The translations under genes and the position numbers were made by a program. Positions 3,831 through 63,971 of a stretch of DNA of 64,000 nt are shown here, piece after piece. This DNA is from Arhodomonas aquaeolei DSM 8974 (lineage in GTDB: Bacteria; Pseudomonadota; Gammaproteobacteria; Nitrococcales; Nitrococcaceae), in the NCBI RefSeq assembly GCF_000374645.1, contig NZ_KB894802.1, forward strand, positions 125,924 through 189,923, written 5' to 3'. How positions within the stretch are numbered: the stretch's first letter is position 1; every line of letters starts with the position of its first letter. Under the pieces are notes generated by a model that saw nothing but the letters and a program-made list of their open reading frames with translations, was not told the DNA's origin and searched no databases.

Positions 3831-3874
3831 GTAGCCGGCCCGGATAGCGCCCCGGCGGTGCTATCCGGGCCGGC
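3831..3874. repeat. 15-bp perfect inverted repeat with GTAG head between trmJ and cysE
   Basis: GTAG at 3831 leads into GCCGGCCCGGATAGC (3834-3848), an 11-base loop, and its exact reverse complement (3860-3874). It may be a terminator for trmJ (no U-run), a leader structure for cysE, or a REP-type element like the GTAG-headed palindromes elsewhere in the window. The choice between these is open. Confidence 0.5.
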
Positions 3875-36439: not shown

Positions 36440-36468
36440 ATGATGGCGCCTCGCCCGGTCGGTGTCAA
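36440..36468 (-). promoter_or_regulatory. Candidate promoter for rpsT
   Basis: Minus strand TTGACA, 17 bases, CATCAT, about 40 bases upstream of the rpsT ATG, in the gap before divergent murJ. Confidence 0.45.
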
Positions 36469-36548
36469 TCACGCGCGACGCCCGCGGCGCGCGGGCGCGC
36501 GACCGCGTACCGGGCCCGGGCATCGCAGGCGTATACGGAGACAACGGC

Positions 36549-38132
36549 ATGAAGGTAGCGGGCCTGTTCCGGGCGTTGCTGACATTCAGCTCGTGGACGC
36601 TGCTCTCGCGGGTCCTGGGGCTGGTGCGCGATATCGTCCTGGGCGTGGTCTTCGGCCCGTCGGCAGGGATGGACGCGTTCCTGGTGGCGTTCAAGATCCC
36701 GAACTTCATGCGCCGGCTCTTCGCCGAGGGGGCGTTCTCCCAGGCCTTCGTGCCGGTCCTCTCGGAGTACCACACGCAGAGCACGCCGCAGGAGGTCAGG
36801 GCGCTGGTGCGCCGGGCCTCCGGGAGCCTGGCGGTGGTGCTGTTGGCGGTGACCCTCGTGGGGATGGCGGCCTCGCCCTGGCTGGTGCGGGTGTTCGCCC
36901 CCGGCTTCGCCGGTGACCCCGAGCGCCTCGCGGCGGCAGCGGGGATGCTGCGGGTGACCTTTCCCTACCTGATGCTGATCTCGCTGACCGCGTGTGCCGG
37001 CGCGGTGCTCAACAGCCTGGGCTCGTTCGGTCCGCCTGCGTTCGCGCCGGTACTGCTCAACATCTGCCTGATCGGCGCGGCGCTGATCCTCGGCGACGTG
37101 CTCGATCCCGGGGTGGCGGTACTTGCCTGGGCGGTGGCACTCGCCGGGGCGTTGCAGCTGGCGCTGCAGCTGCCGTTCCTCGCCCGCCAGGGGTTGCTGG
37201 TGATGCCGCGGCCGGATTTCCGCGATCCCGGCGTTCGACGGGTCCTGCGGCTGATGGGGCCCACGCTGTTCGGCACCTCGGTGCAGCAAATCAACCTGCT
37301 CGTGGACACAGTGCTGGCGTCGTTCCTGATGACCGGCAGCATCAGCTGGCTGTACTGGTCCGACCGTCTGGTGGAGTTTCCGCTGGGCATCTTTGGCGTC
37401 GCCCTCGGCACGGTGATCCTGCCGCGGCTGTCTCGGGATCACACCGGCGCCGGGCCGGAGGCGTTCAACGCGACCCTCGACTGGGCCCTGCGGCTCACGC
37501 TGGTGCTCATCGTCCCGGCGACCGTGGGGCTGATGGCGCTGGCCGCGCCGATGCTGGCGACGTTGTTCCAGTACGGCGCCTTCGGGGCCCGCGATGTCCA
37601 GGCGGCGAGCTTCAGCCTGCTCACCTACGGGGTGGGGCTGTTCCCCTTCGTGCTGGTCAAGGTCCTGCTGCCCGGCTATTTCGCCCGCCAGGACACGCGC
37701 ACACCGGTGCGTTACGCGGTGGTCGCGATGGTGGTAAACGCGGTGTTCAGCATCGCCGCCGTGGCGCTGCTGTACGGCAGCGGCGTTGCCCACGCCGGGC
37801 TGGCCCTGGGTACGGCCCTGGCCGCGGGGGTGAACGCCGGACTGCTCGTGCGCGGGCTGCGCCGGCGCGGCGTCTACCGGCCGCAGGCCGGCTGGCCGCG
37901 CCTGCGCCGGCAGGTCGGTCTGGCGGTCCTGGTGATGCTCGCCGTACTCTACTGGCCGGCCCGCCAGCTCGACGCCTGGATCGCGGCGGGACCGGGGCTG
38001 CGGGTGGCCGCGCTGGCGGGCTGCATCGTGGTGGCGGCGGTGGCGTATTTTGCCGTGCTCCTCGCCCTCGGTCTGCGCCCGGCGATGCTGCGCGAGCCGC
38101 CGTCGTCGGAGGTTCGGACGCCGGCGGGGTAG
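36549..38132 (+). CDS. murJ: MurJ, lipid II flippase
   Basis: 527-residue MOP-superfamily protein with about fourteen membrane helices that flips the peptidoglycan precursor lipid II across the inner membrane. The opening segment LSRVLGLVRDIVLG, then MDAFLVAFKIPNFMRRLFAEGAFSQAFVPVL, split here only by length of citation into DAFLVAFKIPNFMRRL and FAEGAFSQAFVPVL, is diagnostic. ATG 36549 is chosen because GGAG lies eight bases upstream; the frame is open from 36462. It is followed by 853 bases without a gene, then ribF. Confidence 0.94.
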   Translation: MKVAGLFRALLTFSSWTLLSRVLGLVRDIVLGVVFGPSAGMDAFLVAFKIPNFMRRLFAEGAFSQAFVPVLSEYHTQSTPQEVRALVRRASGSLAVVLLAVTLVGMAASPWLVRVFAPGFAGDPERLAAAAGMLRVTFPYLMLISLTACAGAVLNSLGSFGPPAFAPVLLNICLIGAALILGDVLDPGVAVLAWAVALAGALQLALQLPFLARQGLLVMPRPDFRDPGVRRVLRLMGPTLFGTSVQQINLLVDTVLASFLMTGSISWLYWSDRLVEFPLGIFGVALGTVILPRLSRDHTGAGPEAFNATLDWALRLTLVLIVPATVGLMALAAPMLATLFQYGAFGARDVQAASFSLLTYGVGLFPFVLVKVLLPGYFARQDTRTPVRYAVVAMVVNAVFSIAAVALLYGSGVAHAGLALGTALAAGVNAGLLVRGLRRRGVYRPQAGWPRLRRQVGLAVLVMLAVLYWPARQLDAWIAAGPGLRVAALAGCIVVAAVAYFAVLLALGLRPAMLREPPSSEVRTPAG

Positions 38133-38211
38133 ACCGGCCGCGCCCGGCGGCGGGCCGTCTTCACGGACGGGTGCCGGTCGGGACTCCGGCTCCCGGGAGG
38201 CGGCCCGGACT

Positions 38212-38237
38212 GTCGCACGCCTGCGGCGCACGACCTA
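38212..38237 (-). repeat. GTAG-headed palindromic repeat (class C)
   Basis: On the minus strand GTAGGTCGTGCGCC, then an inverted arm ending GGCGTGCGAC. Same type as 42819-42845 and 63732-63758. Confidence 0.6.
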
Positions 38238-38242
38238 CCTGC

Positions 38243-38782
38243 GGGTTCCGGCCGGGATATACCGTGCCATCTGTAGGTCGGCTGCTCCTGGCAGCCAACA
38301 GCTTCCGGGCCCGTGTCGGAACCTGCGCATGGCCGGTCCACGGCGGGTCTGGCGGAACGTCGGCTGCCTGCGAGCAGCCGACCTACCGGCGGCAACATAC
38401 AAGGTCATGCGTGGTCGCAGGCCGTGTGCGACGTCCCCGCCGGTTCCGGCCGGGGTGCCGTGCCACCGGTAGGTTGGCTGCTCCTGGCAGCCAACAGCTT
38501 CCGGGCCCGTGTCGGAACCTGCGCATGGCCGGTCCACGGCGGGTCTGGCGGAACGTCGGCTGCCTGCGAGCAGCCGACCTACCGGCGGCAACATACAAGG
38601 TCATGCGTGGTCGCAGGCCGTGTGCGACGTCCCCGCCGGTTCCGGCCGGGATGCCGTGCCACCGGTAGGTTGGCTGCTCCTGGCAGCCAACATCTTCCGG
38701 GCCCGTGTCGGATACCTGTACATGACCGGCCCAAGGCGGGTTGGGCCGGGATCTTGGCTGTGCTCAGCAGCCAGCCCACGGG
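38243..38782. repeat. Tandem 196-bp repeat array carrying REP-like palindromes
   Basis: Copies start at the GTAG at 38273, 38469 and 38665, exactly 196 bases apart. The first two differ at two positions only; the third agrees for about 50 bases and then diverges to about 38782. Each unit holds a plus-strand class B element (GTAGGTTGGCTGCTCC...GGCAGCCAACA), an inverted copy ending in CCGACCTAC (38360-38386 in the first unit) and half a class A element (GGCCGTGTGCGAC). Open frames across it are by-products of period and GC content. No gene is seen in 38133-38985. Confidence 0.85.
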
Positions 38783-38930
38783 CCCCCTGCGGCCAGGGCC
38801 TCCACGCACGGGTCCCGGTCAGGGTGTCGGTGGCCGGACGTAACCGGCCCGCGGTGGCGGTGCGGGCCGTCGTCGGCGTTCGGCAGATACGCTGAACCGG
38901 CGTTACGCCGGGCCGGCGGCGGCCCACGAC

Positions 38931-38960
38931 TTTCACCGCGCAGTGAATCCACCGTAGAAT
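38931..38960 (+). promoter_or_regulatory. Candidate promoter for ribF-ileS-lspA-ispH
   Basis: TTTCAC, 18 bases, TAGAAT, 26 bases before the ribF ATG and after the repeat array. No FMN riboswitch-like element was recognised. Confidence 0.4.
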
Positions 38961-38985
38961 ACAGGGATTTGGGGACCGGCACGGC

Positions 38986-39954
38986 ATGGAGCTCATCCGG
39001 GGCAGCCACAATCTAGTGCACCGGCACCACGGTTGCGTCGCCACCATCGGCAATTTCGATGGCGTGCACCGTGGCCATCATGCCGTGATCGCGCGTCTGC
39101 GCGAGCGCGCGGACGCGCTCGGGCTGCCGGCGACGGTGGTGACCTTCGAGCCCCACCCGCTGGAGTTCTTCGTGCCCGAGCGTGCGCCGCCGCGTATCAC
39201 CGGGCTGCGCGACAAGCTCGCCGCGTTGCACGGCTGCGGCATCGACCGGGTCGTTTGCCTGCGCTTCGGCCGAGGCCTGGCGGATATGCCGGCGGAGGCG
39301 TTCATCGATGATCTGCTGGTGCGGCGGCTCGGCGTGCGGTTCCTGATGGTGGGCGACGACTTCCGCTTCGGCCACGGCAGGCGGGGCGGTTTCGAGATGC
39401 TGCGCACGGCGGGCGAGACGAACGGCTTCGAGGTGGAACGGATGCCGACGGTAGTCGACGGCGGCAGCCGGGTTTCGAGCACCCGGGTCCGGGAGGCGCT
39501 GGGATCGGGTGACCTCGCCACGGCGGGCCGGCTGCTCGGACGGGCCTACACCATCAGTGGCCGGGTCGCCCGCGGGGACGCGATCGGCCGGGAGCTCGGC
39601 TGGCGTACCGCGAACATCCGTTTCCGGCGTTCGCCGCCGCCGGTGCACGGCATATTTGCGGTGACCCTGGACGGTCTTGGCCGGCGGCAGGAGGGGGTGG
39701 CCAGCGTCGGCACGCGGCCCACGGTCAACGGTCGGGCCACGCTGCTGGAAACCCACCTCTTCGATTTCGACGGCGACATCTACGGCGCCCACGTCGCCGT
39801 GACCTTCCGGGCGTTCCTGCGTGGCGAGGAGCGTTTCGACACCATGGAGGCGCTGCGCGAGCAGATCGCGCGCGACGCCGACGCGGCGCGGGCCTGGTTC
39901 GCCGGGCAGCCCGACAACCCGTCATCGACACAGGATCGCAGGACGACGTCGTGA
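38986..39954 (+). CDS. ribF: RibF, bifunctional riboflavin kinase / FAD synthetase
   Basis: 322-residue enzyme making FMN and then FAD. The N-terminal nucleotidyltransferase domain carries [16 protein letters not shown] and STRVREAL (ISSTxxR-type motif); the C-terminal kinase domain has [19 protein letters not shown] and HGIFAV. The ribF-ileS-lspA-ispH order is standard. The stop overlaps the GTG start of ileS. Confidence 0.95.
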
Positions 39955-42818: not shown

Positions 42819-43183
42819 GTCGCACGCCTCCGGCGCACGACCTACGCGGTCCCCAGTGGTCGTCCAGCGGGTAGGTCGTGCACGGCCAAAGGCCGTGTGC
42901 GACAGCGCGGCCCTGCGGCAGGTCAGGGCGTCGCAAGTACGTCGTGCACGGCCGCAGGCCGTGTGCGAGAGCCCAACACCGCGGCAGGTCGGAATGTCGC
43001 ACGGCCCCGTCGCGCGACCTGCTTGGTCGACGGCGGATAGCGGTCGGGTAGGTCGTGCACCGCCAAAGGCCGTGTGCGACAGCCCCGCGTCGCGGCGCCT
43101 GGTCCGCGCGCGGTGCATCATCGACTCGATCCATGGTGATGCTCGCGCGGGTAGGTCGTGCACGGCCACAGGCCGTGTGCGAC
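42819..43183. repeat. Cluster of GTAG-headed REP-like palindromes between ileS and lspA
   Basis: Class A elements (GTAGGTCGTGCACGGCC, a short loop, GGCCGTGTGCGAC) on the plus strand at 42871-42903, 42937-42970 (head reads GTAC), 43048-43080 and 43151-43183, and a class C element on the minus strand at 42819-42845. The loops vary, mainly AAA, GCA or ACA, while the stems are nearly constant. They fill most of 42792-43247, where no gene is seen. Confidence 0.85.
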
Positions 43184-54949: not shown

Positions 54950-55100
54950 CGGCGACTCCCTGTGGTGATGAGGTGTGCGTGGCGCTCCAGCCGGGGTTCA
55001 GCATACTAAGCCGGCTATTGCCATTGCCACCTCCCGAATCGTGCCGATGCCCGACCCGAGCGATCGTCCCGGCTGGCGCTGGTCTCCGGCCTTGCCCATC

Positions 55101-55595
55101 GTCGGCTGCCGGGAGCAGCCGATCTACGGGAGGTGCAGCGCTACCGGGTTTGCCGGCAGGCCCCCTTTGCGGGATGCCTGCGAAGGGGACCGGTGTTGTA
55201 GGTTGGCCGCTCCTGGCAGCCAACATCCCGTCCCCGGCTACGCCGACGGCTTGAGCGGCCTGATGACCCCGATGTGCGCGCGTGCCGCCAGCGCCGGCGG
55301 GACAAAGCCGGGATGACCGCGTCGGGGGGCGGCCATGCGCAAGCCCGTTCCCATCTGTTCCGGCGTCATCAGGAACCAGACACCCGATACCCCGCAAATC
55401 GCTTGATCCGCGAGACGGTATCTACGGAAGGGTGGACCACCGGGACTTCGTCGAAGGGGTAGATTGGCTGCTCCCGACAGCCAACATCTGTGCGGGAAGG
55501 GTGCGCACGCGGGACAGGCGCCTTGTGATTGCGGGAGGCGGACATCCACTACCCGCCGTATGAGAATGTCGGCTGCCTCCCTGCCGCCGATCTAC
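55101..55595. repeat. Four class B REP-like elements in the 54950-55707 gap
   Basis: Minus-strand copies at 55101-55127 and 55567-55595 flank plus-strand copies at 55198-55226 and 55459-55487. The plus form reads GTAGGTTGGCNGCTCC...GGCAGCCAACAT; the minus form ends CCGATCTAC. This is the element carried in the 196-bp array at 38 kb. Apart from the terminator near 55.65 kb, nothing else is seen in this 758-base gap. Confidence 0.8.
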
Positions 55596-55644
55596 GGGAT
55601 GCGTCGCGCGCTTTCGGCGCATGCCCGGTGAGATTGCCGGGCGG

Positions 55645-61802: not shown

Positions 61803-61856
61803 GCAGCTCGCGGGGTGAATGTCCGTTGTCAGCGCTCAAATGTCCGTTGTCAGCGC

Positions 61857-62555
61857 TCAGTAGTTGACGCGCATGCGCCCGCGCGCGACGACCTCGCCCT
61901 CGACGACACGCTCGGAAGAGAGATTGCGGGCACGTATCCGTTCGCCTCGGGTGCCGTCCTCCAGGGCGCGCCCCTGCATGCTGACCTTCACCGGGCCGTT
62001 GCCGGCCTGGATAAGCAGGGTATCGCCGCGGCGCACGAGTGTCGGGCGGGTCAGCTGACCGGCGTCGATGACCGTACCCGGTTGCAGCGACCGCTGTGTC
62101 TGCAGCCCGATCAGGCCCTCCGGGTCGGTATAGTACTCGCCCCGGAGCCTGGTGGTGGTGCGCCGGGCCGTGCGCAGGTCTTCGGCATCGAGCCGGCTGC
62201 CGCGGGGGACGGGCCGGGCCGCGACGACGACCTCGATGCTGCGCACCACCCGGGTCGGGACGTAGACCTTCCAGGGGGAGGGACCCGGGCAGCGAACCCG
62301 GACCACGAGCCGCTCGCTGCCCTCCCGCCGGTTGGGAGCGTCGGCAGCCAGGGCCTCGCCGCAGGCCGGTAGCCGCAGGCGCTCGTCGAGCCGGTCGATT
62401 TCCACGCGCTCCAGCTGTCCGGCATCGCCGTCGAGCTCGTTGACGAAGGCCTGTACGCTCGTGCGTATCTCCGCCAGCGACTGGGTCGGGCGGGCCTGGG
62501 CCGCGGGCAGCACGCTGCCCAGCAGTATCAGTGCGACGATTGCTCGGTAGGCCAT
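61857..62555 (-). CDS. flgA: FlgA, P-ring assembly chaperone
   Basis: 232-residue periplasmic protein that helps FlgI form the flagellar P-ring. A signal peptide (1-21, AIVALILLGSVLPAAQA) precedes an N-terminal domain with two cysteines and the SAF domain (ARPVPRGSRLDAEDL, about 112-126), then the C-terminal domain VRRGDTLLIQAGNGPVKV. It is divergent from cheR, as often found in Pseudomonas-like flagellar regions, and is followed by flgM. Confidence 0.93.
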   Translation of the reverse strand: MAYRAIVALILLGSVLPAAQARPTQSLAEIRTSVQAFVNELDGDAGQLERVEIDRLDERLRLPACGEALAADAPNRREGSERLVVRVRCPGPSPWKVYVPTRVVRSIEVVVAARPVPRGSRLDAEDLRTARRTTTRLRGEYYTDPEGLIGLQTQRSLQPGTVIDAGQLTRPTLVRRGDTLLIQAGNGPVKVSMQGRALEDGTRGERIRARNLSSERVVEGEVVARGRMRVNY

Positions 62556-63624: not shown

Positions 63625-63971
63625 TCGCACACGGCCTGCGGCTGTGCCCGGCCCATCTGTTTCGGCCTTGACCCCTTCGGCTGGTGGTGTGAGACCTGCG
63701 TCCCGGACGCGGGATTCGGCGAGCCGGGCGGGTAGGTCGTGCGCCGAAGGCGTGCGACGTCGCGGAGGACAGGCCGTCTTCTCGCACACGGCCTGCGGCC
63801 GTGCCCGGCCCATCTGTTTCGGCCTTGACCCCTTCGGCTGGTGGTGTGAGACCTGCGTCCCGGACGCGGGATTCGGCGAGCCGGGCGGGTAGGTCGTGCG
63901 CCGAAGGCGTGCGACGTCGCGGAGGACAGGCCGTCTTCTCGCACACGGCCTGACGGCCGTGCCCGACCTAC
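63625..63971. repeat. Tandem 157-bp repeat with REP-like palindromes
   Basis: Two full units (63625-63781, 63782-63938) that differ at one position, and a partial third (63939-63971) ending in GACCTAC. Each unit starts with a class A-like arm on the minus strand (TCGCACACGGCCTG) and contains a plus-strand class C element (GTAGGTCGTGCGCC...GGCGTGCGAC at 63732-63758 and 63889-63915). No gene is seen from 63601 to the window end. Confidence 0.88.

What the first reader, a model, noticed from the sequence alone, without database searches (positions are those of the whole stretch)
38243..38782. 196-bp tandem array built on REP-like palindromes
Two units identical at 194 of 196 bases plus a diverged third indicate recent duplication of a segment that holds three palindromic elements. 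REP elements are known to be spread by RAYT (TnpA-REP) transposases and recognised by a GTAG or GGAG head; this array shows how larger units may grow by recombination between them.
Basis: partly seen in the sequence, partly recalled or inferred. Interest (0 to 1): 0.5.

Follow-up and report, generated by a model that had tools for sequence, protein, structure and literature searches.

The report
Tandem array of REPIN mobile palindromes
Between two ordinary genes this bacterium carries about two and a half tandem copies of a small hairpin-forming repeat unit (a pair of REP palindromes), of a kind already known from other bacteria and probably spread by REP transposases, two of which are found elsewhere in the same genome.

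Summary
Window 38244-38780, in the 853-bp murJ-ribF gap, carries two near-identical 196-bp units (up to 195 of 196) and a third, near-identical for 77 bases and then decayed. Each full unit holds a head-outward pair of GTAG-headed REP palindromes (class A) that folds into one long hairpin, i.e. a REPIN, plus a decayed palindrome of a second REP class (B). The genome has 61 exact class A and 115 class B sites (0 with reversed patterns) and two REP transposase (RAYT) genes, one among mainly class A REPs, one among class B. In 28 relatives the gap is at most 224 bp, and class A was found once in 29, so the insertion is particular to this lineage. Eight other REP tandem arrays with different unit lengths were found; units share REPs, mostly not linkers, so local duplication by unequal recombination is most likely (inferred). 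One dispersed single copy, 90% identical with its linker, shows that a whole unit was copied at a distance at least once. Tandem REPIN clusters including flanking DNA are published. New member of a known kind; copy number not confirmed by reads.

The parts
38212..38238 (-). intact class B (short form) REP just upstream of the array
   Evidence: C3:164135-164161; folds as a 10-pair stem, z -2.61
38244..38780 (.). whole tandem array, 196-bp period, about 2.5 copies, in the murJ-ribF gap (38133-38985)
38273..38299 (+). unit 1, class A left REP (GTAG head)
38359..38386 (-). unit 1, class A right REP (GTAG head on minus strand)
38411..38432 (+). unit 1, decayed class B palindrome (third palindrome; keeps the 13-base 3' arm of the long form)
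   Evidence: sequence; this part of the unit matches class B sites; weak fold of its own, z -0.60
38469..38582 (.). unit 2, complete class A REPIN: two head-outward REPs that fold into one long hairpin
   Evidence: DNA fold -35.6 kcal/mol, z -3.96 (+ strand) and -33.9, z -4.00 (- strand); 0 of 200 shuffles as good on either strand
38469..38495 (+). unit 2, class A left REP
38555..38582 (-). unit 2, class A right REP
38607..38628 (+). unit 2, decayed class B palindrome
38665..38691 (+). unit 3, class A left REP, intact
38754..38779 (-). unit 3, decayed class A right REP (head changed, stem interrupted)
   Evidence: (2-mismatch hit at 38767-38779)

Best explanation
The array is an ordered cluster of a REPIN, the non-autonomous, hairpin-forming mobile element made of two inverted GTAG-headed REPs. 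A class A REPIN entered the murJ-ribF gap in this lineage, beside or together with class B REPs (the extra DNA is shown by comparison with relatives; the transposition step is inferred from published RAYT biochemistry: cleavage of single-stranded REP DNA at a CT dinucleotide, with the GTAG motif needed for activity). The stretch of REPIN plus about 82 bp of linker was then duplicated in tandem, most simply by unequal recombination between neighbouring REPINs (inferred). The abrupt change between units 2 and 3 suggests that the last exchange lay in a stretch around the left REP of an older, diverged pair of units (inferred). Consequences for the cell (mRNA 3' end protection, supercoiling, or none) are recalled from E. 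coli REP work and untested here.
For: Two inverted GTAG REPs per full unit folding as one hairpin. 61 class A sites against 0 reversed controls; 115 class B against 0. Two RAYTs, C10:42611-43105 and C3:201500-201994, 173.7 and 170.6 bits to NF047646 with cut-off 80; the first matches the solved TnpA-REP chain 4er8 at 3.8e-48; both keep H59-L-H61 and Tyr115. A class A REPIN tandem array begins 38 bp behind the C10 RAYT; the C3 RAYT has class B REPs on both sides and no class A REP within 6 kb on either side. The murJ-ribF gap is 853 bp here and -68 to 224 bp in 28 relatives, 26 of them at most 88 bp. Eight other REP arrays here have periods 66, 84, 101, 109, 125, 129, 157 and 350; for units of seven of these, this one and two array-like stretches, matches fall mainly on REPs and REPINs. 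In the C10 125-bp array, units 3 and 6 and units 4 and 7 are 100% identical while direct neighbours among units 3-7 are 95-97%, as multi-unit duplication gives.
Against: No reads and no second genome of this genus, so copy number and recency are unmeasured. The single-copy paralog at C10:64755-64945 shares the linker too (90%), and five weaker partial matches (73-78%) span the right REP, linker and class B part of the unit, so linkers are not wholly particular to the locus and local duplication is not the whole story. The spacer between the two REPs is 59 bp in this array, against 29-30 bp in the other four exact head-outward class A neighbours, so it is not the usual class A REPIN. The C10 RAYT also has a class B-like REP about 230 bp upstream, so the pairing of RAYT and class is not pure. 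RAYT activity on these REPs is untested.
Confidence: 0.85

Rival explanations
1. The tandem units were laid down by RAYT itself, for example by repeated processing of a circular or rolling intermediate that carries REPIN plus linker, rather than by host recombination.
For: PMC3733652 reports (passage) a proposed model in which complex REP arrays result from processing of circular intermediates; a large class A array lies directly beside the C10 RAYT; among 80 named loci with related RAYTs, 16 of the 76 with at least 200 bp downstream have a tandem array (period 50 or more) starting within 200 bp behind the gene, and 5 of the 79 with at least 200 bp upstream have one ending within 200 bp before it (L170, where an array overlaps the computed gene end, was not counted).
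Against: Unit lengths, and mostly linkers, differ from locus to locus, and the 125-bp array shows multi-unit copies, which host recombination gives directly. The downstream excess includes 6 Halomonas/Vreelandella loci out of 16 and shrinks to 9 against 4 loci if only arrays with a GTAG head and a stem score of 7 or more are kept (read).
Confidence: 0.2
2. A larger composite cassette (class A REPIN, class B palindrome and flanks, about 190-200 bp) is itself the mobile unit, and the array is that cassette inserted or duplicated.
For: A single copy of the whole unit, linker included, at C10:64755-64945 between convergent open frames, 90% identical; five weaker matches at 73-78% over the right REP, linker and class B part; with exact REPs masked, this array still shares 53-56 bases at 77-79% with two other REP clusters, and many other pairs of clusters share non-REP-pattern sequence.
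Against: Only one dispersed copy of the whole unit was found; the sharing is inflated by decayed REPs that were not masked, and its output was cut.
Confidence: 0.15
3. Assembly artefact: a single unit, or more units than shown, misassembled.
For: The genome is in 48 contigs; 23 of the 161 REP sites tabulated lie within 2 kb of a contig start; the C10 array holds a run of 100 N.
Against: The three copies differ from each other at several positions, so they are not simply one copy read twice; collapse of further copies remains possible.
Confidence: 0.07

Closest known systems
Ordered REPIN clusters of Pseudomonas fluorescens SBW25 (PMC3116915; passages seen)
   Different: Other REP sequences; here two REP classes and two RAYTs, a 59-bp REP-REP spacer, and a unit that also contains a decayed REP of the other class.
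GTAG REP families and clusters (PMC3733652; passages seen)
   Same: GTAG head, small palindromes, head-to-head dimers, large clusters of singletons or dimers repeated in tandem with flanking DNA of variable length; dimers made of different GTAG families known in S. maltophilia.
   Different: Classes A and B were not compared with that paper's consensus table (figure not held). An exact class A pattern gave no stretch in the named genome collection, from which the window's own genome may be left out.
BIME of Escherichia coli (recalled; also named in PMC8266576, passages seen)
   Same: Alternating REPs in mosaic, sometimes repeated, intergenic elements in a genome with a TnpA-REP.
   Different: Sequence; gyrase or IHF binding (recalled) not testable here.

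Membership tests
GTAG REP | 20-40 bp palindrome with GTAG at one end | tested here: met
   27-28 bp, GTAG head, stem score 10
GTAG REP | many copies in the genome | tested here: met
   61 class A and 115 class B exact-pattern sites, 0 for both reversed patterns
GTAG REP | mainly between genes | tested here: inconclusive
   true for this array (murJ ends 38132, ribF starts 38986) and, by open frames, for the C10 copy; not counted genome-wide
REPIN | two REPs in inverted orientation, heads outward, forming one hairpin | tested here: met
   114-nt fold of unit 2, z -3.96 and -4.00; orientations
REPIN | cognate RAYT in the genome, near REPs of the same class | tested here: met
   class A array behind the C10 RAYT (with one class B-like REP upstream), class B around the C3 RAYT
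REPIN | mobilised by the RAYT | not testable with these tools
   needs cleavage or excision assays
RAYT (TnpA-REP) | curated family model over cut-off | tested here: met
   NF047646, 173.7 and 170.6 bits against a cut-off of 80; Pfam Y1_Tnp reaches only 19.2 and 18.3 bits against a cut-off of 23
RAYT (TnpA-REP) | HUH motif and catalytic tyrosine | tested here: met
   H59-L-H61 and Y115 kept in both, read from the alignment; the E. coli mutant Y115F is named in PMC8266576; no catalysis tested
E. coli BIME-2 | binds DNA gyrase | not testable with these tools
   biochemical (recalled)

The most novel reading that the evidence does not exclude
A composite cassette made of a class A REPIN, a class B REP relic and shared flanks moves as one unit, so that two RAYT systems in one genome cooperate to build and spread hybrid elements larger than a REPIN, with tandem growth favoured beside (mainly 3' of) RAYT genes.
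Probability: 0.12. Interest if true: 0.5.

Novelty: new member of a known kind. Interest (0 to 1): 0.25.

Why it matters
It adds a genome with two related RAYTs, standing mainly among different REP classes, and with at least nine REP tandem arrays of different unit lengths. That makes a compact natural system for asking whether REP arrays grow by host recombination or by the transposase; the passages seen of PMC3116915 speak only of 'a second mechanism' for cluster formation. The array itself is ordinary for REP-rich genomes.

Tried and rejected
RAYT was sought first with Pfam PF01797 (Y1_Tnp): no match at E 0.001 in the genome; the two proteins score 19.2 and 18.3 bits, below the cut-off of 23. 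The REP-specific model NF047646 found both. A structured RNA family: at gathering thresholds Rfam gives only two tRNAs in the window. The array was sought in the plasmid and phage collections by blastn in distant mode: no match in either. A RAYT search there confirmed 481 relatives, of which the best 80 were kept, 47-59% identical, many from Gammaproteobacteria, others from cyanobacteria and other phyla. A terminator for murJ inside the array: the simple scan finds none in it, and one promoter-like site at 38932-38960 ahead of ribF (shuffles: mean 0.1); weak evidence only. I first thought of placing the crossover inside the REP hairpin from three differences in unit 1, but the C10 copy suggests that at least two of them are private to unit 1, so only a broad interval around the left REP (about 38460-38516) is offered, as inference. 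The excess of arrays downstream of RAYT genes depends too much on related Halomonas/Vreelandella loci to claim; in the same of 43 array units hold a GTAG head with a stem score of 7 or more, against 1 to 11 of 43 for seven other heads. One search used all 61 class A sites but only 100 of 115 class B sites, because the listing was cut; the output was cut too. One search left out the 109-bp array.

Full report
What is there. The array lies between murJ (36462-38132, TIGR01695, 448.8 bits) and ribF (38986-39954, NF004163, 414.9 bits), both on the + strand. TRF reports a 196-bp period, 2.5 copies and 95% matches at 38244-38741. The count of identical bases between successive 196-bp units runs from 177 to 195 of 196 over the phases 38243-38321, 194 for phases 38273-38279 and 38302-38321, with one exact run of 175 bases. 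Unit 3 follows unit 2 at 75 of 77 bases and then becomes a gapped, decayed match in which the second REP is broken.

Anatomy. A full unit holds a left class A REP (unit 2: 38469-38495, + strand) and a right class A REP (38555-38582, - strand), heads outward, 59 bp apart, followed by 82 bp of linker that contains a decayed palindrome (38607-38628) with the 3' arm of a second REP class, B. An intact class B REP stands at 38212-38238 on the - strand, ahead of the array. The 114-nt stretch from head to head in unit 2 folds as one long hairpin on either strand, -35.6 and -33.9 kcal/mol, z -3.96 and -4.00, 0 of 200 shuffles as good. This is the REPIN plan.

Genome-wide. The genome (3,957,769 bases, 48 contigs) has 61 exact class A sites and 115 exact class B sites; the patterns read backwards give 0 and 0. 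Of the 161 sites whose positions were tabulated (61 of 61 A and 100 of 115 B), 133 fall in 43 clusters of two or more within 300 bp and 28 are alone; 17 of the 71 groups hold both classes; 70 of 90 neighbour pairs are in opposite orientation. Head-outward class B pairs with exactly 23 bp between them occur 11 times in that table; the four head-outward class A neighbours outside the window array have 29-30 bp, so the 59-bp pair of this array is a variant. The whole 196-bp unit occurs once more as a single copy, C10:64755-64945, 90% identical over 190 bases including the linker, between two convergent open frames. Five weaker matches (73-78%) cover the right REP, linker and class B part only.

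Transposases. Pfam Y1_Tnp finds nothing at E 0.001, but NF047646 (REP-associated tyrosine transposase) finds two genes, 164 aa each and 62% identical, at 173.7 and 170.6 bits against a cut-off of 80. The C10 protein matches the solved TnpA-REP chain 4er8 at 3.8e-48. Both keep H59-L-H61 and Y115. A tandem array of class A REPINs starts 38 bp behind the C10 gene (3.1 and 5.6 copies of about 125 bp on the two sides of a run of 100 N); a class B-like REP lies about 230 bp ahead of that gene, so its surroundings are mainly, not purely, class A. The C3 gene is flanked on both sides by class B REPs. The nearest RAYT among the relatives' loci compared (L133, 62-65% identical) stands among GTAGGTCG-headed palindromes with other stems. 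Of 80 named loci with related RAYTs, 48 have a GTAG-headed palindrome repeated at least twice, against 0 to 10 of 80 for eleven other heads.

Lineage. In 28 of 29 relatives (one had no RibF match) murJ and ribF are neighbours with a computed gap of -68 to 224 bp, 26 of 28 at most 88 bp, against 853 bp here. The class A pattern occurs in 1 of 29 relatives, once, though 15 of 29 have a RAYT over the cut-off. The extra DNA is therefore particular to this lineage; no second genome of the genus was among the relatives offered.

Mechanism. Eight other REP tandem arrays were found, with periods 66, 84, 101, 109, 125, 129, 157 and 350; not all of the genome was scanned for arrays. Comparing one unit each of ten arrays or array-like stretches (the 109-bp one was left out), matches fall mainly on the REPs and REPINs; linkers are mostly particular to the locus, with the exceptions told above and some sharing outside exact REPs. 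In the C10 array, units 3 and 6 and units 4 and 7 are identical while direct neighbours among units 3-7 are 95-97% alike. These facts favour local duplication by unequal recombination over delivery of ready-made units. For the 196-bp array the abrupt loss of identity after base 38712, with high identity before it, fits an exchange around the left REP of an older diverged pair of units. These steps are inferred. RAYT-made arrays (a model reported in PMC3733652, passage) are not excluded. The dispersed copy at C10 shows that the larger unit has been copied at a distance at least once, by an unknown route.

Known or new. PMC3116915 (passages) describes ordered clusters in P. [quoted passage not shown] PMC3733652 (passages) describes large GTAG clusters of singletons or dimers repeated in tandem with flanking DNA, and hybrid dimers of different GTAG families. 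PMC8266576 (passages) gives the cleavage biochemistry. This array is a new member of that kind. I ran three paper searches; none was aimed at this organism, which was not named.

Limits. No reads were available, the copy number may be collapsed, and REPs lie close to many contig starts (23 of 161 tabulated sites within 2 kb). No function for the host was tested.

Noticed in passing
window 42820-43183: Class B REP array behind ileS, with a 66-bp tandem pair (131 bp, 80% matches).
   Followed up: partly
window 63625-63965: 157-bp class B REP tandem array, 2.2 copies, 98% matches.
   Followed up: partly
window 55099-55596: Cluster of decayed class A REPs, some with a GTAGAT start.
   Followed up: no
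window 61818-61859: Perfect two-copy 21-bp tandem repeat.
   Followed up: no
window 3831-3873: Hairpin with a stem score of 17 behind a GTAG, unlike classes A and B in sequence.
   Followed up: no
L062:17144-18331 (G000 C10): Tandem array of 125-bp class A REPINs directly 3' of the C10 RAYT, with a multi-unit repeat pattern and a run of 100 N inside.
   Followed up: partly
L153-L232: Among 80 named RAYT loci, tandem arrays of period 50 or more start within 200 bp downstream of the gene in 16 of 76 and end within 200 bp upstream in 5 of 79; related Halomonas/Vreelandella loci contribute 6 of the 16.
   Followed up: partly
G000 contigs C7, C17, C23 (starts): About 250-280 bp at the REP-bearing starts of these contigs are 99% identical, so longer repeats next to REPs may have broken the assembly there.
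   Followed up: no
L137:1132-1719 (G000 C4): Seven tandem copies of an 84-bp unit that carries a single class B REP, all in one orientation: single REPs can be amplified too.
   Followed up: no
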